A stretch of DNA of 23,401 nucleotides from Fibrobacter sp. Lineage in GTDB: Bacteria > Fibrobacterota > Fibrobacteria > Fibrobacterales > Fibrobacteraceae. The notes under the pieces were generated by a model. That model was not told the DNA's origin. It worked only from the letters and a program-made list of their open reading frames with translations, and ran no database searches. The first letter of the stretch is position 1. Each line of letters starts with the position of its first letter. This document shows positions 1-10,248 of the stretch, in pieces. The position numbers and the translations under genes are program-made. The stretch lies in NCBI GenBank assembly GCA_017550445.1, contig JAFZOV010000077.1, positions 1 through 23,401 of the forward strand, given 5' to 3'.

Positions 1-1327
1 CCTTGCCGAGTTCTTCTTCGATGCGGAGGAGGCGGTTGTACTTGCACACGCGGTCCGTACGGGAGAGAGAACCAGTCTTGATCTGGCCAGCGGCAGTACC
101 GACGGCGAGGTCAGCAATGAAGGTGTCTTCGGTTTCGCCAGAGCGGTGAGAAACGATCGGAGCGTAGCCTTCGTTCTGAGCGCGCTTGATGGCAGCGAGA
201 GTTTCAGACACAGAACCGACCTGGTTCACCTTGATGAGGATAGCGTTGGCGATGCCAGCCTTGATGCCTTCGTCGAAGATGGTCGGGTTGGTAACGAACA
301 GGTCGTCACCCACGAGGTTGATCTTGGAACCGAGCTTGTCGGTCATGACCTTCCAGCCAGCCCAGTCAGCTTCATCGAGACCGTCTTCAATGGAGAAGAT
401 GGAGTACTTGTCGATGAGCTTTTCATAGAGCTTCACCATGTCGGCAGACTTAACAGTCTTCTTGGTGCTCTTCTTGAAGGTGTAGGTTTCCGGCTTGCCA
501 GCCTTGGTGTTCTTGTCGCAGAATTCGGAAGAAGCAACGTCAAGAGCGATCTTGATGTCAGTGCCGAACTTGTAACCGGCATTGGTCGTTGCAGCCTTGA
601 GAGCGTCGAGAGCCTTTTCGAGGGTCATCACGCCAGTGATTTCGTAACCGAACTTGTTCTTAGCCGGCTTGATAGAAACGCCAGGAGCGAAGCCACCTTC
701 GTCACCGACGGTCGTGTCGAAGCCACCCTTCTTCAGCACAGCCTTGAGGGCGTGGAAGATTTCGGTGACCATCTGGAGACCCTTGGAGAAAGTCTTAGCG
801 CCAACCGGGGCGATCATGAATTCCTGGAAGTCGATCGGAGCGGAGGAGTGAGCACCGCCGTTGATCACGTTGCACATCGGGCACGGGAGAGTGAGCTTCT
901 TGGTGCCATGGAGCTTGGCGATGTACTGGTAAAGCGGAAGGCCAGCATCCTTAGCGGCAGCAACGCAAACAGCCATAGAAACGCCGAGGATAGCGTTTGC
1001 ACCGAGCTTGTTCTTGAGCATGCGGTTGCCGTCGAGAGCGATCATAGCGTCATCAACTTCGGTCTGCTTGGCCGGATCCATGCCAATGATCTTCTTAGCA
1101 ATCTTGGTGTTCACGTTCTTCACAGCAGTGAGGACGCCCTTACCGAGGTAGGTCTTCTTGTCACCGTCGCGGAGTTCGCAAGCTTCGCGTTCGCCGGTGG
1201 AAGCGCCGCTCGGAACAGCAGCGTGACCGGTCACGCCGTTTTCGAGGGTAACATCAACTTCGAGAGAGGGATTGCCGCGAGAGTCGAGAATCTGGCGGGC
1301 AACAACGGATTTGATTTTAGAAGCCAT
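1..1327 (-). CDS. eno: Enolase (phosphopyruvate hydratase), 3' end cut by window edge
   Basis: Enolase interconverts 2-phosphoglycerate and phosphoenolpyruvate in glycolysis, as a cytoplasmic Mg-dependent enzyme. About 442 codons are visible from the ATG at 1327, and the frame runs off the left edge without a stop. Family motifs seen in order are NPSLEVDV near the N-terminus, the VINGGAH loop, [33 protein letters not shown] with the catalytic lysine, [10 protein letters not shown] and [10 protein letters not shown]. These cover the metal ligands and the catalytic Glu and Lys residues of the family. The visible length already matches complete bacterial enolases (about 430 residues), so only a few C-terminal residues are missing. 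Codon use is strongly biased, as expected for a highly expressed gene. The start follows a weak AAGG-like ribosome site. Identity is certain. Confidence 0.97.
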
Positions 1328-1365
1328 TTTTTAGCCTTTTTGTTTAGTGTGAGATTTTATGCGTG

Positions 1366-1373
1366 CAAATATA
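1366..1373 (-). promoter_or_regulatory. Candidate -7 box for eno (TATATTTG)
   Basis: On the minus strand this reads TATATTTG, a perfect match to the Bacteroidota -7 consensus TAnnTTTG, and it lies 38 nt upstream of the eno start. The same string within CTATATTTGCAC occurs in front of rpsL. No TTG is found 19-21 nt further upstream, where the -33 box should be; that region is occupied by the GTGGTTAG repeats. The call therefore rests on the -7 box and its position only. Confidence 0.5.
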
Positions 1374-1380
1374 GAAAAAA

Positions 1381-1459
1381 GTGGTTAATGGTTGGTGATT
1401 AGTGGTTAGTGGTTAGAAAAAAAATGTGAAGATTTAGTGATTAGTGGTTAGCTGGTTAG
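1381..1459 (+). repeat. Imperfect GTGGTTAG / GTGATTAG repeat patch
   Basis: The stretch consists largely of short units such as GTGGTTAA, GTGATTAG, GTGGTTAG and CTGGTTAG, broken by an A-rich spacer at about 1417-1436. The 15-mer GTGATTAGTGGTTAG occurs twice, at 1395-1409 and 1437-1451. It lies between the divergent eno and lipoprotein genes, immediately upstream of the eno -7 box. No open reading frame or stable inverted repeat explains it. It could be a slipped-strand expansion or a degenerate interspersed repeat; its function is unknown. Confidence 0.7.
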
Positions 1460-1504
1460 ATGAAATTAGCAAAAAGTTGGGAAAAAACTATCATTTACAA
1501 CAAG

Positions 1505-2329
1505 ATGAAATGCATTATTGTTCTTATCACGGTCCTGTTACTAGTAGCATGTAACAAAGAGCAAAAGCCCGTAACGTTTTCAGAAGAGGAAAGCTTTATG
1601 GATGTTACTCCAAAATTCTATTCCGTAAACGGGGCGAAAATAGGCCTCACCGACAAAGACCTCATCGAAAACGGCAAAGATTCCGCAAAAGCCATTATAG
1701 AGATATTCAGAACAAAAGAGAATTTCAACAAGATGTGGTATAACGACAAATTAAAAAAGCCTGCCCCAGAAGAAAGAGTCCGCATACATTTTGACGAAAA
1801 TCTCCCTTACAAAGCACTCCATAGGGTTTTAACAGCTATCCGCATAGCAAGCATATCAGAAATTGAATACGTTATCGGAGACGATTTCAAGAACCCATTC
1901 AAAGTTCCCTACTTCACAATAAAACAATCTCCTATAACAGAGAGCCTTTTTGCCAGCATTATTCGTTTAGAACTGAAAGGTGTAAGTGAAGACAATCTCG
2001 ACTTACGCACATTGAACGAGTCGCACAGAAAAATGGCTCTCTATGATTTGAACAAATGCCGCTGGCCCAAAGTTTCCATTTATGTCAAAGAAGAAAATGA
2101 TTCATTATTTTATTATATGTACATCCATAAATCTATATTCCCCCACAAGGGGGATCCGCGAAAATTCCTTAATGAGTCAGAATTATGGAATTACATTGAC
2201 AGCATGGGTATAAAAAGACAATTGGAAAGCAAAGCCTGCGACAAGCACATCGGTTTCTACCCGGATTCAAACATTCCCTTAAAAGAACTCGTTCCAACGA
2301 TGCGAAAAATAGAAGCATTCCGAAAGTAA
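1505..2329 (+). CDS. Lipoprotein with two ExbD/TolR-like segments, function unknown
   Basis: A predicted 274-residue lipoprotein. From the ATG at 1505 the N-terminus is MKCIIVLITVLLLVACNKEQ, a short hydrophobic signal ending in the lipobox LVAC, so Cys16 would be lipidated. A longer frame opens at 1460 but would place 15 polar residues before the signal, so 1505 is preferred; neither start has a clear ribosome site. Two segments resemble each other and the periplasmic domain of ExbD/TolR: DENLPYKALHRVLTAI (about residues 97-112) and DSNIPLKELVPTMRKI (about 254-269), each preceded by a short beta-like stretch. The gene uses TTA and CTA codons and is AT-rich, unlike the flanking housekeeping genes. 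It converges on the A-B-C operon with a single base between the stop codons. I do not recognise a named family, and the ExbD-like reading is inference. Confidence 0.75.
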   Translation: MKCIIVLITVLLLVACNKEQKPVTFSEEESFMDVTPKFYSVNGAKIGLTDKDLIENGKDSAKAIIEIFRTKENFNKMWYNDKLKKPAPEERVRIHFDENLPYKALHRVLTAIRIASISEIEYVIGDDFKNPFKVPYFTIKQSPITESLFASIIRLELKGVSEDNLDLRTLNESHRKMALYDLNKCRWPKVSIYVKEENDSLFYYMYIHKSIFPHKGDPRKFLNESELWNYIDSMGIKRQLESKACDKHIGFYPDSNIPLKELVPTMRKIEAFRK

Positions 2330-2330
2330 C

Positions 2331-3689
2331 CTAGCGATTATCCCAAGCGTTGCACTTGTCGAGCGCTTCTTTCATCGAATTCAACTGGCCCTTACTAAAC
2401 TTTTCATAGAGGACTCTGCGCGTTCCCTTGTAGAACGCCATGCCCGCTGTTTTTCGTGCAGCCTCGTCGCCCAACTTTTGAACGGTCTTTTTAGATACAT
2501 TGGCCGGCAACAGAATCTCCATCACAGGATCATCGTATTTTAAAGAGTCCATAAACGAAACCGCATCTTTCGCTTCTTTCAATCGCGCATACTGCCAAAA
2601 CGCTTCGCGGTCCCAACCGCTAAATTCACCTTTTCCGTTCATCACGAAATCTAGGCCATGCTCTTTGGCCTTGCAACCTTTTGGCGATGTCAACTTTGTT
2701 TCGCAAGAATAAAATGGAGTTTCTCGTTTTTTCATTTCTTTAAATCCATTGAAGTTCTCGTAGCAATAAGTTCTTGTAAATTTTCCATAACAAACATCTT
2801 CAGAATAAAATTGATTCGGCACATTCGACCCGAATACTAAATAGCGCTTTCCATCCACTTCAAAGCACTCCAAGCTTTCTTCTGACGCCTCGGGCTTATC
2901 AATCATGTTCATCCGTTTGGTGCTTCCATAAGAATTAACAGGATGGTGTTTCTCATTAGCGTTATCATAATAGCATGGAAACACTCCTTCTGCCAGTACC
3001 ATGTCTTCTTCCGAAGAGTAACCGTTTCTACGCCACTCCCATACGGTTTCCAAGGAGTCCTCATCAAGAGAGTCGTCTTCTGTTGAATCCACTTCCGTTT
3101 TCGTGTCGACAACTTCTGTTTTCTTCTCTGACGCTGAAACTTCTACAGGAGGGCACGGCCCATCGATAACAACATTCAGCTTTGTCTTTAATGTTATAGA
3201 CTCGTAAGATGGGCACAAACATGAAAGTGTCGTCTCCCAATCCGCCTTGAACTTTTTACCATAAAGTTTTTTCACAGATGTAGTATCTATCGGTTTTTCG
3301 TTTCCGCAAAGACAGCCGCCCTCCCTCGTATCCAATTCGTCTATAAACGGACTCATAACGCTTCTTTTTTTTAATCGCTCCGTATCCGAGCACACTTTGC
3401 AACTAAATTTATCTGAATTTCCATCATATTCCCCGCTCATTTCAATTTGCCAGCCTTTAAAATTCAATACGAACTTATTTTTCCAAACAATTCGCCCACA
3501 CGTCAAAGAGTCAGGCCATTTCCATTTTGAATTCGGATTAATTTTTTTAACAGCCTTTATGCCCAAATCAAAATCGTCCGCAGTTTCATCAAATGACGAA
3601 ACGCAGAAATGCGCCGTCGAGGGCTCCTTCGCAAAAAGAGAACCAACCAACACGACCATCATAAGCAGGATCAACTTTACAGTTTTCAT
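2331..3689 (-). CDS. Exported two-module cysteine-rich protein C (B-like module fused to A-like module)
   Basis: A predicted 452-residue exported protein of unknown function, third gene of the minus-strand operon. The start at 3689 gives a signal peptide (MKTVKLILLMMVVLVGSLFA, then KEPS). Upstream in-frame codons lie inside the preceding gene, and this ATG overlaps that gene's TGA as ATGA, suggesting translational coupling. Module 1 (about 21-180) has FC, WKWPDSLTC, CKVC, CLC, LYGKKFKADW and DGPC, matching elements of protein B. An acidic Ser/Thr-rich linker (about 181-215) follows. Module 2 (about 235-452) matches protein A: FPCY, SNVPNQF, YCYEN, FYSCE, KGCK, TAGMAFY and a final KCNAW. The many conserved cysteines suggest disulfides outside the cytoplasm. 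No known enzyme motif is visible. Confidence 0.8.
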   Translation of the reverse strand: MKTVKLILLMMVVLVGSLFAKEPSTAHFCVSSFDETADDFDLGIKAVKKINPNSKWKWPDSLTCGRIVWKNKFVLNFKGWQIEMSGEYDGNSDKFSCKVCSDTERLKKRSVMSPFIDELDTREGGCLCGNEKPIDTTSVKKLYGKKFKADWETTLSCLCPSYESITLKTKLNVVIDGPCPPVEVSASEKKTEVVDTKTEVDSTEDDSLDEDSLETVWEWRRNGYSSEEDMVLAEGVFPCYYDNANEKHHPVNSYGSTKRMNMIDKPEASEESLECFEVDGKRYLVFGSNVPNQFYSEDVCYGKFTRTYCYENFNGFKEMKKRETPFYSCETKLTSPKGCKAKEHGLDFVMNGKGEFSGWDREAFWQYARLKEAKDAVSFMDSLKYDDPVMEILLPANVSKKTVQKLGDEAARKTAGMAFYKGTRRVLYEKFSKGQLNSMKEALDKCNAWDNR

Positions 3690-4831
3690 GGCAAAAGGTC
3701 CTTCACTTCGATGCATTTGGCCGGACATATATAACCATCGCCGCAATTTTCCCAATGTCCAACAATACTTTTTGTATGGAGTAGGACATCTTCGACCTGT
3801 TCCAATTCGAAAATATTCTGTTTCTTTTTCTCCTGCAAATCATGCTTAGTACATTTGCCGCCGATACGGGCATAAAGCAACACATTTCTTTCAATAGTAT
3901 CATAATTGCAAGTCAGTACATTCCTTGACATAACAGGAATATTCTTCCCGTATAATTTTTTTGCAGGAATACCCTTGAGCGCATCCGCACCGATATACTT
4001 AGGAATGGGCAGATAGACCTTGGTCGCAATGACGCTTGTCGCATTGCAGGTATCCTGCTCCACAAAATGTGTCAACATTCGTTTTCCATATTCCGCAAAA
4101 TCCATTTCGTACGACTTTTCGACACGCATCGCACCTTCGCACTTCATCTTTTTTCCATCGGCAAAAGTAAGCTTCGGCAACACATCGTAATAATTAGTCA
4201 AATGAAGTTCCGCTTCTTTCCCGCCAGCGACGCAATATTCCACAACAGGAATCGTATCGTTACATTCGCCCACGAACCGTGCCAAAAAGTCTCGCTTCAT
4301 CGGAGGAAATTTACCATTGCCATTGGTATCCCATTCGCCTTTCCAACGGCCCTTGAAAACTTGCCCATAAAAAGGCTTCAATGATTCGCGAGCGTTGCGA
4401 AGATAGAATGTAGCCTTATCCTCATATTCTTCACTTTTTCTACAGCAGGCGTTTTCATCTTTACTGCCGTACAATTTTATTTTCCTGATGCGTTCCAATT
4501 TAATCGGCCTTTTGGGGCAATGAGTACAGACGGCAATTCCTCCACCACCGCCACCCAATAAACCAACTAAACCATCTTCTCGGCATTCAATATCAAATGG
4601 GAAAAAGACTTTGCTTTCCGTTTCCCATTTGGCACGACACGGAGTGTGTTCGCAAGGAATCGAATCGGGATAGTTCCACTCCTTGATAGGTTCATCAAGG
4701 TCCTTTATCAGCAAAGGAACGTATGTACTATCGTCTAGAATCTTGGCGCAGTATTCTGCAATGCGGGGTGTTTCTGCCAGCGCTCCAGAAACAAAACAAA
4801 GATAGGCTATGCAAATACTATGGAATTTCAT
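3686..4831 (-). CDS. Exported cysteine-rich protein B with internal duplication
   Basis: A predicted 381-residue exported protein, second gene of the operon. MKFHSICIAYLCFVSGALA is a signal peptide with cleavage likely before ETPRIAEYC. Two similar halves are visible: residues 20-190 (EYC, EWNYPDSIPC, CTHC, CC, FYGQVFKGRW, FVGEC) and 195-327 (EYC, CEGAM, KKLYGKN, LTC, RIGGKC). The first half also matches module 1 of protein C. A run of six glycines (about 93-98, within LLGGGGGGIA) interrupts the first half. The C-terminal 50 residues (CGDGYICPAKC) add more cysteines. The start overlaps the end of gene A by 14 nt and the stop overlaps gene C as ATGA, so the three genes are almost certainly co-transcribed. 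No named family is recognised. Confidence 0.8.
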   Translation of the reverse strand: MKFHSICIAYLCFVSGALAETPRIAEYCAKILDDSTYVPLLIKDLDEPIKEWNYPDSIPCEHTPCRAKWETESKVFFPFDIECREDGLVGLLGGGGGGIAVCTHCPKRPIKLERIRKIKLYGSKDENACCRKSEEYEDKATFYLRNARESLKPFYGQVFKGRWKGEWDTNGNGKFPPMKRDFLARFVGECNDTIPVVEYCVAGGKEAELHLTNYYDVLPKLTFADGKKMKCEGAMRVEKSYEMDFAEYGKRMLTHFVEQDTCNATSVIATKVYLPIPKYIGADALKGIPAKKLYGKNIPVMSRNVLTCNYDTIERNVLLYARIGGKCTKHDLQEKKKQNIFELEQVEDVLLHTKSIVGHWENCGDGYICPAKCIEVKDLLP

Positions 4832-5597
4832 GCGCCATCCCCCAGTCCTTACAGGTTTTCATCACATCAGCTAGCGAAGAGAAGTTTCCTCGTTTATAAG
4901 ATTTACTTTCGACCTTTTGGGTCCGCAAATAGAAATCCATTCCCGTCAACCTGGGCGCAGCAGAATTCCACGCCTCCACGACATCTTCGTCTTTCAAGCC
5001 CCACGGCAATATTTGGTAAAAGCCCCATGACTTATGATTTTTCAAAAGCCAGCCCATCAAGGAATCCAAACTTTTCCTTTTATTCGCCTCGAAATAGTAA
5101 AGCAAGGCTTTTCGCGAAAGATTCGACATTTTCAAATCTTCAGTTACAAGAATTTCCATTCCCTTTTCCACAGGCTTGCAACCTTTGGCTGTCGCCTCCG
5201 TATTCTTGCAAGAGTTAAAATAGAGTCCAGACTTTTTCGTATAACGCAGAATTTCTACATCTTCGCCAAGATTGCCGCAATTCATGTTATCATCGTAACA
5301 GCGAGACTTGCTGCCCCAAAAAACGCTATCGCGAATCTGTTCCGGAATATTGCTCCGGGCAATTATATACGCATGACCTTCGCCATAAAAACAATCCACC
5401 TTATTTTCAACAAAGGCCAATTCGCCATCCATCGGCATTGTCGTGGAACTCGCGTAATTCGCAATCTTGCAAAAATGACCGTGAGGCTCATAGCACGGAA
5501 AAATATCCTTAGCGCCCTGCGGAATTCTTATCATTCCTGCGAAGCCAGCAACAATCGCTAAGCAAATCACAATCCAAAGAAGCTTCAATCCACCCAT
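4818..5597 (-). CDS. Exported or membrane-anchored cysteine-rich protein A
   Basis: A predicted 259-residue protein, first gene of the A-B-C operon. The ATG at 5597 begins MGGLKLLWIVICLAIVAGF, a signal anchor or signal peptide, and follows a GGGGAATAGG ribosome site. A longer frame from 5645 would begin upstream of the -7 box at 5630-5637, so it is rejected. The exported part contains FPCY, VDCF, SNIPEQI, SRCYDDN, FNSCKN, KGCK, LTGMDFY and the terminal KTCKDW, all in the same order as in module 2 of protein C, so the two are paralogous. In A the region stands alone, whereas in C it is fused behind a B-like module. No catalytic motif is visible. An extracytoplasmic structural or binding role is plausible but unproven. 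Confidence 0.78.
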   Translation of the reverse strand: MGGLKLLWIVICLAIVAGFAGMIRIPQGAKDIFPCYEPHGHFCKIANYASSTTMPMDGELAFVENKVDCFYGEGHAYIIARSNIPEQIRDSVFWGSKSRCYDDNMNCGNLGEDVEILRYTKKSGLYFNSCKNTEATAKGCKPVEKGMEILVTEDLKMSNLSRKALLYYFEANKRKSLDSLMGWLLKNHKSWGFYQILPWGLKDEDVVEAWNSAAPRLTGMDFYLRTQKVESKSYKRGNFSSLADVMKTCKDWGMAHEIP

Positions 5598-5629
5598 CGA
5601 CCTATTCCCCGAATCACGTTGCACGTTTA

Positions 5630-5659
5630 TAAATATAACATACAAAAATATAATTCCAA
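5630..5659 (-). promoter_or_regulatory. Promoter of the A-B-C operon (TTG-N19-TATATTTA)
   Basis: Read on the minus strand, TTG (5657-5659) is followed after 19 nt by TATATTTA (5630-5637), one base short of the Bacteroidota -7 consensus TAnnTTTG. Transcription would start near 5623, leaving a leader of about 26 nt with a GGGGAATAGG ribosome site before the ATG at 5597. It lies in the 71-nt gap after the regulator gene, so the operon can be expressed independently, though read-through from the regulator is not excluded because no clear terminator is seen in the gap. Confidence 0.55.
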
Positions 5660-5668
5660 GAAAAAGGC

Positions 5669-6988
5669 TTATTTTTCCACCACATGCCCCGAAAGCTCCC
5701 TAAAATCATCTTTTTTATACAAAGTAACACCAGGGGATACCAGGTGGAATACGGACTGTTCCGCAAGGGCATCGAGGCTGAACTCAAAGGAATCCAGACG
5801 GTTGCGGTAACTGTCGTTGGAATTGTCGAACGACACCATGTAAGGCGGGCGCTTGAGCTTACCCTGCTCCACAAGCGATAAAATTTCCACCCCTACCCTA
5901 TCGTTAGACACGACCCACGCATCTACAGGCGGAATCTCTTTCACCAGCTTTAGCAAAATACGGCTAAAAAGTTCGTGCACCCCCTTCTCCTGCATAAAAT
6001 CAAAATGGCTCGCATGGCTCGCATCGGTCGCCTCGACTACATCGAGCCCCACCTTCTTGAGCCCTTTCAAACGATCCCTCGACCACATGCTCATGTGGTA
6101 AGGCGAAATAAAGGCGACGCGTTCCATTCCCCTTTCTTTCAAGAAATGCCCCACCGCGCGCCCCGGAAAATCACCAAAGGCCAAATTGAAGAACGCGTAA
6201 CGCTTTTCTTTTTTTAACGCGCGGGGAATGTCGTACAGCGGGTGTTCCCACCACACCGAAATCGGGAACCGCGTGCAGGCAAGCAGGGCAAAGAGTTTGC
6301 TTATGTTGAACACCAGCATTGTCGAAACGACGGCACCGAAGTATTCGCCACAGTCCTCCAGCCGAACCCGGTTTCCGGCGGCATCTAGAAAAAGCCCCGC
6401 GTTCTCATAGTATCCAAGCGCCTTGACTTTAAGCTTGTTGCGGCGCGCCTCGGCATACACCTTCTGCATGAACGTAAGTTCACGTTCGCCAAGCCCGTTA
6501 AAATCCCCGTTCGGATTGCAACGCATAATCAAGAGGATTTCCTTCAAGTTGGCCGCAGACGACCTTGTATTCTTGAAGTAGTAACGCCCGCGGCCCTTGC
6601 GGTCGAGCACTCCCCTTTCACGCAGCATTTCAAGGGTACGGCTCATGGAGCCCGACGTGGTCCTGTAAACTAAGCACAAGTCCTTAATCGACGGCAGCGT
6701 ACTGTCTACCGAAATCTTGCCGGATTTCCAGTCTTCTAAAAGCAAGCGTTCCAGGCGTTCAGTCTCGTGCTCGCTTGCGTCTACCACGATTTCGGGCTTT
6801 TGGCCCCAAAAGTAACCATTACCGTGCTCTCCGTAGATTTTCCCTTGTTCTACCAAGCGCTTGTACGCCTGGAAAACCGTAAAGGTCGAGGCATGCAATG
6901 ACGCAGCCACCTTGCGCACAGATGGAAGCCTTGCGCCGTCCTTGAATCCGGACGATTCTATCCACTTGCAAAATTCATCGACAGTCAT
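5669..6988 (-). CDS. Transcription regulator: two tandem GntR-type winged helices plus LacI-type ligand-binding domain
   Basis: A predicted 439-residue cytoplasmic DNA-binding regulator. Residues 5-61 form a GntR-type winged helix (LPSVRKVAASLHASTFTVFQ, then AYKRLVEQGKI and GNGYF). Residues about 76-138 repeat the pattern (LPSIKDLC, SRTLEMLRERGVL, GRGRYYF). From about 148 on the protein resembles the periplasmic-binding-like domain of LacI/GalR and AraR regulators: HFLKERGMERVAFISPYH with a following RDRLKGLKKVGLDV, and DAWVVSNDRVGVEIL with MVSFDNSND. B. subtilis AraR has one GntR winged helix before such a domain; a second copy is unusual. The start has a GGAGG site. The gene is divergent from the GH26 gene with 131 nt between them, so control of that hemicellulase by a sugar ligand is the likely role. 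Ligand and operator are not known. Confidence 0.88.
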   Translation of the reverse strand: MTVDEFCKWIESSGFKDGARLPSVRKVAASLHASTFTVFQAYKRLVEQGKIYGEHGNGYFWGQKPEIVVDASEHETERLERLLLEDWKSGKISVDSTLPSIKDLCLVYRTTSGSMSRTLEMLRERGVLDRKGRGRYYFKNTRSSAANLKEILLIMRCNPNGDFNGLGERELTFMQKVYAEARRNKLKVKALGYYENAGLFLDAAGNRVRLEDCGEYFGAVVSTMLVFNISKLFALLACTRFPISVWWEHPLYDIPRALKKEKRYAFFNLAFGDFPGRAVGHFLKERGMERVAFISPYHMSMWSRDRLKGLKKVGLDVVEATDASHASHFDFMQEKGVHELFSRILLKLVKEIPPVDAWVVSNDRVGVEILSLVEQGKLKRPPYMVSFDNSNDSYRNRLDSFEFSLDALAEQSVFHLVSPGVTLYKKDDFRELSGHVVEK

Positions 6989-8390: not shown

Positions 8391-10061
8391 CTATTTCACG
8401 ATCTTGTATGCCTTGTTGCCGACAATGACAAGCATCGGGCCCGTTTTGGCGAGGCGGACTTCCTGGGTCGAAGTCGCAATCTTCGATGCCGAGAGCACGC
8501 GACCGTTGAGGTCAGTAACGGTATACTTGGTGCCTGCCGGAGCATTTTCAATAACAATAGCATTGTTGGTGGACCACACGCGAACATTATTATTCAAGGC
8601 AACCGTTGTGCGAATTGCAATCGTAGAATCCGGATCCGGAGCAGACTTCTTGGCGATTGTAGCCTTGTAGAGTTTGCAACCTTCAAAGTAGTCAACCTTG
8701 TCGCCGTCACTATAGGTAACGCCATTGATTTCGGTATCGGTAATGGTCTTTTCTTCGGATTCGACAGTCGGCTTCGGCTTCCAAATCTTGAAGTTACCGC
8801 TCAGATGAAGCATAGCGAGGTAGTGCACCAGGCCATCGTAGTAACGATACTGACCGGTCATGAGTTCCGTGTCCCAAGCCAGCTGGAGGTTCTTCTTGAT
8901 CTTTTCTTCAGAACCCGAAGTACTTCTCAAGGCAATGGCTGCGACAGCGTTTGCGCCGGCTTCGCCCTGCGTGTAGCTTTCGTCAGCACCCGAGCCGTCC
9001 CAGTTAAAGCGGGCGTGCTTGTAACCATCCTTTTCAAAGAAATTGATGATTCTTGTAGCCATTTCAATTTCTCTGGTGGAGTCAGCACCGAACAGGTAAT
9101 AGTCCATACCGAAGTTCATAGCGCAACGCATGGCGTCGTACATATACTTGGTCGAATTCGAGTTGTACGAATAAGACTGCGGCTGGCCATTGAAAGCACT
9201 GTAGTCGGCGAACAAACCGGAGCTCGTATTGGAAGACTTGTAAAGGTGATCGCGTGCAGCAGATACTGCTCTAGTCCACTTGTCCGTGTCCTTTTCTGCC
9301 CAGCGGGAGAACAATTCCAAGTATGCCGGCAAGTCATAAGACGGGTCAGAGAAATCGTTACCATTGCCAAGGGGCTGGAACACGATAATGTAATTGCCCT
9401 GGTTGAAGAGCTTGTGGCTCGGGTTGTTCCACATCTTGTCCATGATGTACAGAGCATCCTTTCTGTATTGGTCATCGTTCCAGCGGTTAGCTGCGAACAA
9501 GAGGGACATCATGAAATACATTTCACCATCCGGTGCGCAGTTATCATCACCATCGTAACCGCTATCGTTGCGCTTCCAAGCAAAGTAACCGTCCCAGTCG
9601 CCACCCTTGTGCCACATGTGGTTCTTGGCCCAATTCCAGAGCTTGTCGAATTCTTCCTTGTGGTTCGTCTGCACGGCAATCATCATGCCATAAGACATAC
9701 CTTCAGAACGTACGTCGTTGTTATTGATATCCTTGATGTAACCTTCGGAACCTTTATCGAAAAAGACCTGGGAATTTTGATCACCCTTGAAGTAGTGATT
9801 CCACATTTTGTCCATTTTTGCCTGGATTTCTTCGTCAGTCTTGCCCAAATAGGTCTTGAACGGGCTGGTGTAATTACCAGTGTAGTAAGCACCGTTCAGC
9901 TGGCTTCCATCCTTTTCGCAATCCGGGCCATAGTAGGCACCGTTTTCGTCAAAGAAGGTTCCTGCGTAGGTTTCTGCGGCCATCGATGTGGTGGCAGCAA
10001 ATGCACCCAAGCATGCTGCAGACGCCAAAATGCCTGCATAGGATTTAAGGTTCTTATTCAT
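8391..10061 (-). CDS. Secreted GH8 xylanase/oligoxylanase-type glycoside hydrolase with C-terminal sorting-like domain
   Basis: A predicted 556-residue secreted enzyme of family GH8, an inverting (alpha/alpha)6-barrel family. The start at 10061 gives a signal peptide (MNKNLKSYAGILASAACLGA, cleavage near SMAAET) and has a GGGAG ribosome site. The frame extends upstream to 10238, but that part crosses the promoter and a terminator. Diagnostic features are VRSEGMSYGMMIAVQ with the general acid near Glu120, APDGEMYFMMSLLFA with an Asp near 178, YMYDAMR with a candidate base Asp near 308, TQGEAGANAVAA and YLAMLHLSGNF. The last motifs resemble GH8 xylanases (pXyl, Rex type) more than GH8 endoglucanases, which is from memory of those families. 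After about residue 430 a linker and a C-terminal domain (TVTDLNGRVLSAS, ending GNKAYKIVK) resemble type IX sorting domains. Confidence 0.92.
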   Translation of the reverse strand: MNKNLKSYAGILASAACLGAFAATTSMAAETYAGTFFDENGAYYGPDCEKDGSQLNGAYYTGNYTSPFKTYLGKTDEEIQAKMDKMWNHYFKGDQNSQVFFDKGSEGYIKDINNNDVRSEGMSYGMMIAVQTNHKEEFDKLWNWAKNHMWHKGGDWDGYFAWKRNDSGYDGDDNCAPDGEMYFMMSLLFAANRWNDDQYRKDALYIMDKMWNNPSHKLFNQGNYIIVFQPLGNGNDFSDPSYDLPAYLELFSRWAEKDTDKWTRAVSAARDHLYKSSNTSSGLFADYSAFNGQPQSYSYNSNSTKYMYDAMRCAMNFGMDYYLFGADSTREIEMATRIINFFEKDGYKHARFNWDGSGADESYTQGEAGANAVAAIALRSTSGSEEKIKKNLQLAWDTELMTGQYRYYDGLVHYLAMLHLSGNFKIWKPKPTVESEEKTITDTEINGVTYSDGDKVDYFEGCKLYKATIAKKSAPDPDSTIAIRTTVALNNNVRVWSTNNAIVIENAPAGTKYTVTDLNGRVLSASKIATSTQEVRLAKTGPMLVIVGNKAYKIVK

Positions 10062-10095
10062 TTTCACTCCCATTAGTGTTGTTTTCCCTTTACCG

Positions 10096-10126
10096 CAAAG
10101 ATAAATCCCGCTGTATACAAAAGCAA
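10096..10126 (-). promoter_or_regulatory. Promoter of the GH8 gene (TTG-N20-TATCTTTG)
   Basis: On the minus strand TTG (10124-10126) is followed after exactly 20 nt by TATCTTTG (10096-10103), a full match to TAnnTTTG. The expected transcription start is near 10089, giving a leader of about 27 nt before the ATG at 10061. The spacing equals that of the rpsL and regulator promoters in this window. Confidence 0.65.
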
Positions 10127-10156
10127 TAAAAGTCCGACTATTTGCGTTGTATGGTT

Positions 10157-10165
10157 TTAAACGCC
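10157..10165 (-). promoter_or_regulatory. GGCGTTTAA motif upstream of the GH8 promoter
   Basis: The minus strand reads GGCGTTTAA followed by AACC, a half-match to the GGCGTTTAACGCC palindrome in the GH26 leader. It sits about 31 nt upstream of the GH8 -33 box. It may be a shared regulator site for the two hemicellulase genes; nine shared bases alone are weak evidence. The rest of the 10062-10312 gap holds the GH8 promoter and the two rpsG terminators. Confidence 0.3.
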
Positions 10166-10214
10166 TAAATTTGAGCAAATTCGCCAATTCCGTGTTAGAA
10201 TTTATGTCTACAAT

Positions 10215-10248
10215 AAAAAAGCCCGCCCACGAAGACACGTGCGGCGGG
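10215..10248 (-). terminator. Second terminator downstream of rpsG
   Basis: On the minus strand CCCGCCGCACG and CGTGGGCGGG form a GC-rich stem with one bulged G around a 6-nt loop, followed directly by GC and six T residues. It lies about 65 nt after the rpsG stop and backs up the hairpin at 10255-10278. Confidence 0.85.

What the first reader, a model, noticed from the sequence alone, without database searches (positions are those of the whole stretch)
2331..5597. Operon of three exported cysteine-rich proteins built from two interchangeable modules
Module 2 of protein C (about 235-452) matches protein A from FPCY through KGCK and TGMxFY to the final KxCxxW, in order. Module 1 of C (about 21-180) matches the repeated unit of protein B (PDSxxC, CxxC, LYGKxFKxxW, GxC). 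C therefore looks like an A+B fusion sitting downstream of separate A and B genes. All three carry signal sequences, overlap by 4-14 nt and have no recognisable catalytic motif. Such a stand-alone plus fused arrangement usually means the modules act together, here outside the cytoplasm. I know of no named family that fits.
Basis: partly seen in the sequence, partly recalled or inferred. Interest (0 to 1): 0.72.

Follow-up and report, generated by a model that had tools for sequence, protein, structure and literature searches.

The report
Toxin-free immunity-like operon in Fibrobacter
Three exported, cysteine-rich rumen-bacterium proteins share their two building blocks with a family of secreted, swappable protease proteins and the partner genes that travel with them, so this operon is probably a toxin-free protective offshoot of a bacterial warfare system, although that has not been tested at the bench.

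Summary
A (4818-5597), B (3686-4831) and C (2331-3689), minus strand, are overlapping genes for exported, cysteine-rich proteins; C is a B-type plus an A-type module. No Pfam or NCBIfam family matches.

Relatives change the meaning. B-type modules are near-constant downstream partners of exported proteins ending in an HExxH zincin domain: 28 of 31 zincin places found in 167 phylum genomes. Those proteins behave like polymorphic toxins: the zincin end is exchanged on similar N-terminal parts, and the B-type gene follows the zincin (nearest zincin neighbour is nearest B neighbour in 17 of 25 loci; for the N-terminal part 0 of 19). A-type modules are middle domains of some of these proteins.

The operon carries both module types without a zincin, at a variable site between a GntR gene and enolase. 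Most likely it is a toxin-free, immunity-like operon (orphan immunity, perhaps with a decoy). Shown: homology, architecture, association, covariation, purifying selection. Inferred: toxicity, inhibition, protection.

The parts
4818..5597 (-). gene A, 259 aa: signal-like N-terminus plus one A-type module (about 4821-5516)
   Evidence: ORF and translation; A-type profile; relatives
3686..4831 (-). gene B, 381 aa: signal peptide-like N-terminus and two B-type modules
   Evidence: ORF and translation; profiles; fold model mean pLDDT 81
4250..4768 (-). B-type module 1 of gene B (residues about 22-194)
   Evidence: profile hits
3836..4249 (-). B-type module 2 of gene B (residues about 195-332)
   Evidence: profile hits
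2331..3689 (-). gene C, 452 aa: signal-like N-terminus, one B-type module, acidic low-confidence linker, one A-type module
   Evidence: ORF and translation; linker 183-229 has pLDDT under 50
3144..3629 (-). B-type module of gene C (residues about 21-182)
   Evidence: 99.3% to B module 1
2334..2996 (-). A-type module of gene C (residues about 232-452)
   Evidence: E 4e-20 to A; 100%
5669..6988 (-). GntR-type regulator upstream on the same strand; neighbour, also present in genomes without the operon, so not a defining part
   Evidence: Pfam GntR E 3.3e-12; adjacent to A or B in 5 loci; present without the operon in L129

Best explanation
The A-B-C operon is a toxin-free, exported offshoot of a polymorphic zincin system of the family Fibrobacteraceae. 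In that system a long exported, cysteine-rich protein ends in an exchangeable zinc-metallopeptidase-like (HExxH) domain, and B-type proteins encoded directly downstream are its cognate exported partners, most likely immunity proteins that bind and block the zincin in the periplasm or at the surface. The operon keeps immunity-type modules (two in B, one in C) and A-type modules, which elsewhere are middle, possibly targeting, domains of the exported zincin/chassis proteins. I propose that it protects the cell against zincin effectors of relatives: the B-type modules inhibit, and the A-type modules anchor the inhibitors or compete for the surface site that A-bearing proteins use. Shown: homology, architecture, zincin/B-type association and covariation, variable presence, purifying selection. 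Inferred: toxicity of the zincins, inhibition by B-type modules, protection by the operon, any role of A.
For: B-type genes lie within 400 bp downstream of 26 of 31 zincin places by profiles A5/A7 and of two more by other B-type profiles: 28 of 31. Downstream neighbour is B-type after 21 of 28 called zincin genes against 12 of 655 other genes in the same loci. C-terminal exchange: L147_09 and L186_02 share 99% of the first 200 residues and 80% of the 350 upstream ones but 32% of the zincin; L185_01 and L188_09 91%, 80% and 25%. Covariation: zincin-B rank correlation 0.50, N-part-B 0.26; nearest-neighbour agreement 17 of 25 against 0 of 19; all 24 pairs with zincins at least 50% alike have B at least 42% alike, and 12 of 13 pairs with N-part at least 55% but zincin under 45% have B at most 31% alike. 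One ORF fuses zincin and B-type module. The operon's B-type modules fall among zincin-linked ones in a tree. A-type modules occur in exported Ser-linked proteins with and without zincin. No zincin in the operon; 9 of 15 operon-bearing genomes show no zincin place.
Against: No toxicity, binding or protection was shown. Covariation also fits a chaperone or pro-region-like inhibitor. The N-part-B correlation is weaker but not nil (0.26, p 0.006), and one of 13 N-similar pairs has B 53% alike. Many partners are recognised only by profile A7, which was built from such partners: with A5 alone 15 of 31 places have a B-type hit within 400 bp and 22 of 31 within 1.5 kb. Two zincins of genome G162 have no recognised partner. 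Tree support for the placement of operon modules is modest. A-type modules are unexplained by immunity alone. No sign of positive selection. Co-occurrence of operon and zincin in genomes is not significant (6 of 15 against 13 of 65, p 0.17).
Confidence: 0.45

Rival explanations
1. A-B-C is an independent exported envelope or fibre-adhesion complex; B-type modules are general binding modules used both here and beside zincins, and A-type modules are surface-binding modules. The modules act together, with no role in immunity.
For: B-C order kept in 20 of 20 operons and A in 15 (L080); purifying selection; module B models as a beta-sandwich-rich protein with only generic Ig/FN3-like matches; relatives share CYxC modules with proteins that look like cellulases (L239, L244, judged by eye).
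Against: The B-type family otherwise sits behind zincins and covaries with them; sparse presence in 15 of 80 genus genomes.
Confidence: 0.3
2. B-type proteins are export chaperones or activation partners (pro-region-like inhibitors) of the zincins rather than immunity proteins, and the operon controls a protease encoded elsewhere in the genome.
For: Gene order zincin then B-type, often overlapping; covariation with the zincin; one fusion.
Against: Several B-type genes in a row behind one zincin (for example L015, L147, L093) and B-type genes without a zincin nearby (L195-L197, L200) fit immunity better; 9 of 15 operon-bearing genomes show no zincin.
Confidence: 0.15
3. The operon is a decaying remnant of a former zincin locus with no present function.
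For: Sparse, site-dependent distribution; zincin-less chassis proteins exist.
Against: dN/dS 0.10-0.48 in 18 comparisons; intact reading frames and kept order.
Confidence: 0.05

Closest known systems
Polymorphic toxin systems with zincin-like metallopeptidase toxin domains (Zhang et al. 2012, PMC3482391; passages read)
   Same: In the zincin relatives: signal-bearing multi-domain protein, exchangeable C-terminal HExxH domain, small gene directly downstream that covaries with it.
   Different: The window's operon has no toxin domain. The paper's table lists no immunity protein for Tox-MPTase1-5 and Imm-SuFu for the ALF-type class (which it reports in Fibrobacteres); none of these was matched here, and no Pfam toxin family was hit.
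Orphan immunity genes / acquired interbacterial defence in Bacteroidales (PMC10470768, abstract and passages)
   Same: Immunity-family genes without the toxin, variable presence, genomes lacking the effector.
   Different: Here B-type modules are fused to A-type modules from the effector side, proteins are exported, the site is a fixed chromosomal interval, and protection is untested.
DUF922 zincins (Pfam PF06037; predicted zincin in PMC3650047, passages)
   Same: HExxH; weak match of 4 of 12 zincin domains, best E 0.0021.
   Different: Below the curated cut-off (15.2 against 27 bits for L036); concerns the relatives, not A, B or C.

Membership tests
Polymorphic toxin system (the zincin relatives) | Exchangeable C-terminal toxin domain on a similar N-terminal part | tested here: met
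   pairs 99% and 91% alike in the first 200 residues with zincins 32% and 25% alike. Only zincin-type C-termini were found.
Polymorphic toxin system (the zincin relatives) | Cognate gene directly downstream that covaries with the toxin domain | tested here: met
   28 of 31 places; covariation
Polymorphic toxin system (the zincin relatives) | Toxicity neutralised by the partner | not testable with these tools
   Needs expression experiments
Polymorphic toxin system (the zincin relatives) | Association with a secretion system | not tested
   Only signal-like N-termini were seen
Polymorphic toxin system (the window's A-B-C operon itself) | C-terminal toxin domain | tested here: not met
   No HExxH and no Pfam or NCBIfam family in A, B or C
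Orphan immunity / acquired interbacterial defence | Immunity-family genes without the cognate toxin | tested here: met
   B-type modules without zincin in the operon; 9 of 15 carrier genomes without a zincin place (genomes incomplete, and L101 is cut at a contig end next to a B-type gene). That B-type genes are immunity genes is itself inferred.
Orphan immunity / acquired interbacterial defence | Arrays of diverse immunity genes on mobile elements | tested here: inconclusive
   Variable site and low GC, but no mobile-element gene recognised; no relative in viral contigs with A5
Orphan immunity / acquired interbacterial defence | Protection against an incoming effector | not testable with these tools
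   Needs competition experiments
DUF922 (relatives' C-terminal domain) | Score above Pfam's gathering threshold | tested here: not met
   15.2 bits against 27 (L036); best E 0.0021 in 4 of 12
Ig-like / FN3-like beta-sandwich (module B) | Clear structural match to a solved fold | tested here: inconclusive

The most novel reading that the evidence does not exclude
A two-pronged exported resistance operon: B-type modules inhibit zincin effectors while stand-alone and fused A-type modules, shared with the middle of such effector proteins, occupy the surface receptor those proteins need (decoy plus inhibitor in one operon), on top of a new zincin-effector/immunity family confined to the fibre-degrading Fibrobacteraceae.
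Probability: 0.2. Interest if true: 0.78.

Novelty: new variant of a known kind. Interest (0 to 1): 0.6.

Why it matters
It turns three anonymous exported proteins into a testable prediction about conflict among cellulose-degrading rumen bacteria, for which my full-text searches returned no paper on an effector/immunity system of this kind. It also offers a predicted inhibitor family for secreted zincins, and an operon that recombines effector-side and immunity-side modules without the catalytic part.

Tried and rejected

Idea that all middle domains of zincin proteins are A-type: shown for L089_12, L090_08 and L096_06 (99.8%); L138_03 and L192_01 join them by BLASTP clustering (the 99.9% printed there is partly by construction, as three of the five were in the A profile); not shown for the clusters of nine (15.7%) and four (38.4%). 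Idea that D and the lipoproteins at the site are one family: 18% first, 91.5% over 119 columns with 11 lipoproteins; likely, not proven. Positive selection as an arms-race sign: not found. Co-occurrence of operon and zincin across genomes: not significant. Viral contigs with A5: 13 stretches matched a pattern, none a relative.

Dropped before counts: in the covariation test two of 27 zincin ORFs (both G162) because no B-type partner was recognised, though L182_03 has an unrecognised 245-aa gene 4 bp downstream; N-part comparisons used 19 of 25 loci, as the other six lack enough upstream residues. Of the 31 zincin places one is a 132-bp fragment; it was kept in the count. In one search some '100%' zincin pairs come from very short alignments with free end gaps and were not used; one search repeats the comparison normalised by length. 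L231_00 looked like a zincin-less chassis but runs off its contig end and is not counted. Gene calls came from a simple codon-score script, so 21 of 28 undercounts partners that searches find.
Full report
THE OBSERVATION. All start with a hydrophobic signal-like stretch. A and C module 2 are clear homologues (E 4e-20; 0 of 1000 shuffles). C module 1 and the two B units are homologous by profile (99.3% and 86.4%) though weakly alike pairwise. A-type and B-type modules are unrelated to each other by the same tests (0.1%; 867 of 1000 shuffles). None of the three matches a Pfam or NCBIfam family at E <= 1. GC is 0.41-0.45 in the 1-kb windows from 1001 to 6000 and 0.48-0.57 in the others.

RELATIVES. 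A search of 5.8 billion proteins listed 33 relatives of C, 22 of B and 21 of A (the last including the window's own), none with a precomputed Pfam domain; the three with a source name are from Fibrobacter. In 80 genus genomes, 22 have a match to the C profile and 21 to the B profile; 15 carry the operon (list). A scan of named genome records gave 11 loci, 10 titled as Fibrobacter MAGs and one as a bacterium isolate. Across 167 phylum genomes B-type modules occur in 34, in 5 of 40 genera, all in the same family.

OPERON ANATOMY. Among 20 operons (the window's and 19 others) B lies directly upstream of C; 19 were called as genes and the one in L080 rests on the profile hit. A is present in 15. 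In six operons C carries a third C-terminal domain D (706-755 aa), and five of these lack A. D also occurs alone (L014_01) and is probably related to lipoproteins found at the same site (91.5% over 119 columns). So A is optional and B-C is the core.

LOCATION. The window's operon lies between a GntR-type regulator and enolase. In eight operon-less genomes fetched for the same interval none has A, B or C there: in L129 the GntR gene is followed directly by enolase, in L131 only a 91-aa remnant of the GntR gene stands there, and others hold lipoprotein-like or other genes. Other operons sit elsewhere, beside genes that look like glutamate synthase (L011, L012, L085, L100; names judged by eye). 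Between the window and genome G080, A, B and C have dS 0.35, 0.47 and 0.58 and dN/dS 0.18, 0.11 and 0.18, while four flanking genes have dS 0.03-0.37; over all 18 comparisons of A, B or C dN/dS is 0.10-0.48. The genes are constrained; the unequal dS suggests exchange of segments.

THE ZINCIN SYSTEM. B-type genes also stand behind a second kind of gene: long exported proteins with serine-rich linkers, CYxC repeats, often a [YF]DxLGR motif, and a C-terminal domain with HExxH. In an alignment of 12 such domains the H, E and H of HExxH are invariant and a further His is nearly so; 4 of 12 match DUF922 weakly, best E 0.0021, below the curated cut-off. DUF922 has itself been predicted to be a zincin (PMC3650047, passages). 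A profile search found 31 zincin places in 22 of 167 phylum genomes. A B-type hit lies within 400 bp downstream on the same strand in 26 of 31, and two further partners were found with other B-type profiles (L090_09; L181_06): 28 of 31. The other three are G078:C21, where both the zincin match and a B-type match about 550 bp downstream hold stop codons, and two in genome G162. With the A5 profile alone, which does not contain the small partners, the counts are 15 of 31 within 400 bp and 22 of 31 within 1.5 kb. The small partners are tied to the rest by independent hits: the B2 profile finds L015_07 at 4e-28, and profile A7 finds the second module of a two-module B-type protein of G008 at 9e-71 whose first module matches the B1 profile (L095_08, 5e-38). 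Three more zincin proteins of a divergent class were found through their chassis and are not in the count (L236_04, L237_02, L238_03); B-type ORFs lie about 650 bp downstream of them (L236_05; L037 and L038).

POLYMORPHISM AND COVARIATION. Proteins with near-identical N-terminal parts carry zincins only 25-32% alike. The B-type partner follows the zincin: rank correlation 0.50 over 25 loci (Mantel p 0.001), against 0.26 for the N-part (p 0.006); partial correlations 0.49 and 0.21; the nearest zincin neighbour is also the nearest B neighbour in 17 of 25 loci, the nearest N-part neighbour in 0 of 19. All 24 pairs with zincins at least 50% alike have B at least 42% alike; of 13 pairs with N-part at least 55% alike and zincin under 45%, 12 have B at most 31% alike and one 53%. 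One protein fuses zincin and B-type module (L192_01). This is the pattern of polymorphic toxin/immunity pairs as described by Zhang et al. (PMC3482391; passages read). Toxicity is not shown. Eight chassis proteins end without a zincin (L089_12, L096_06, L145_04; L232_06, L233_04, L234_04, L235_03, L243_06).

WHERE THE WINDOW'S OPERON FITS. Its B-type modules fall among zincin-linked B modules in a tree of 103 modules (134 before removing near-duplicates), with modest support. Its A-type module is the middle domain of some exported Ser-linked proteins, with zincin (L090_08; by clustering also L138_03 and L192_01) and without (L089_12, L096_06). It has no zincin. In two genomes it lies near a zincin-type locus: L079 (zincin, B-type gene, then A-B-C within 10 kb) and L101 (B-type gene at the contig end). 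Nine of 15 operon-bearing genomes show no zincin place, with incompleteness as a caveat, and co-occurrence is not significant (p 0.17). I therefore read the operon as a toxin-free, immunity-like offshoot, at 0.45. The main rival is an independent envelope complex using the same modules, at 0.3.

STRUCTURE. The B model is fair (mean pLDDT 81, pTM 0.77), the C model modest (72, 0.48); both are strand-rich in the B-type regions, with no informative match among solved structures.

LITERATURE. Full-text searches for Fibrobacter with polymorphic toxins, with interbacterial toxins and immunity, or with cysteine-rich hypothetical proteins, and for polymorphic toxins with zincin and immunity protein, returned no paper whose title or abstract start describes such a system in Fibrobacter (listings only, apart from the passages named). 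PMC3482391 lists Fibrobacteres among carriers of several toxin classes, including an ALF-type metallopeptidase; beyond the absence of a Pfam toxin hit I could not test whether any zincin here belongs to it. Orphan immunity genes that protect are documented in Bacteroidales (PMC10470768, abstract and passages). PMC6851124 (passages) proposes type IX secretion for F. succinogenes cellulases; I did not test secretion.

Noticed in passing
L014:1867-3987 and L014:1006-1857; P0025, P0027, P0029, P0031, P0032, P0034: A third module D (about 290 aa) is fused to the end of C in 6 of 20 operons and also stands alone; it is probably related to lipoproteins at the same chromosomal site.
   Followed up: partly
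L192:423-3770 (+): One 1115-aa ORF holds a zincin domain followed by a B-type module, a natural fusion of the predicted effector and its partner.
   Followed up: partly
L089_12, L096_06, L145_04, L232_06, L233_04, L234_04, L235_03, L243_06: Chassis proteins of the zincin family that end without a zincin, most of them about 20-30 residues after the [YF]DxLGR-like motif.
   Followed up: partly
L239:4216-6495 (+), L244:5222-6775 (-): CYxC modules of the zincin chassis also occur in proteins that look like family-45 cellulases (judged by eye), so they may be carbohydrate-binding modules.
   Followed up: no
window 1460-2329 (+): Convergent 289-aa lipoprotein with a weak ExbD-like stretch (E 0.0036, below cut-off); between the window and G080 its dS is only 0.03 while the operon beside it has 0.35-0.58.
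   Followed up: no
L233:8037-8561, L234:8632-9171, L235:1363-1935: A short lipoprotein gene with a similar start lies directly upstream of several chassis genes.
   Followed up: no
window 8391-10238 (-): GH8 protein whose C-terminus weakly matches DUF6383 and a T9SS sorting domain.
   Followed up: no
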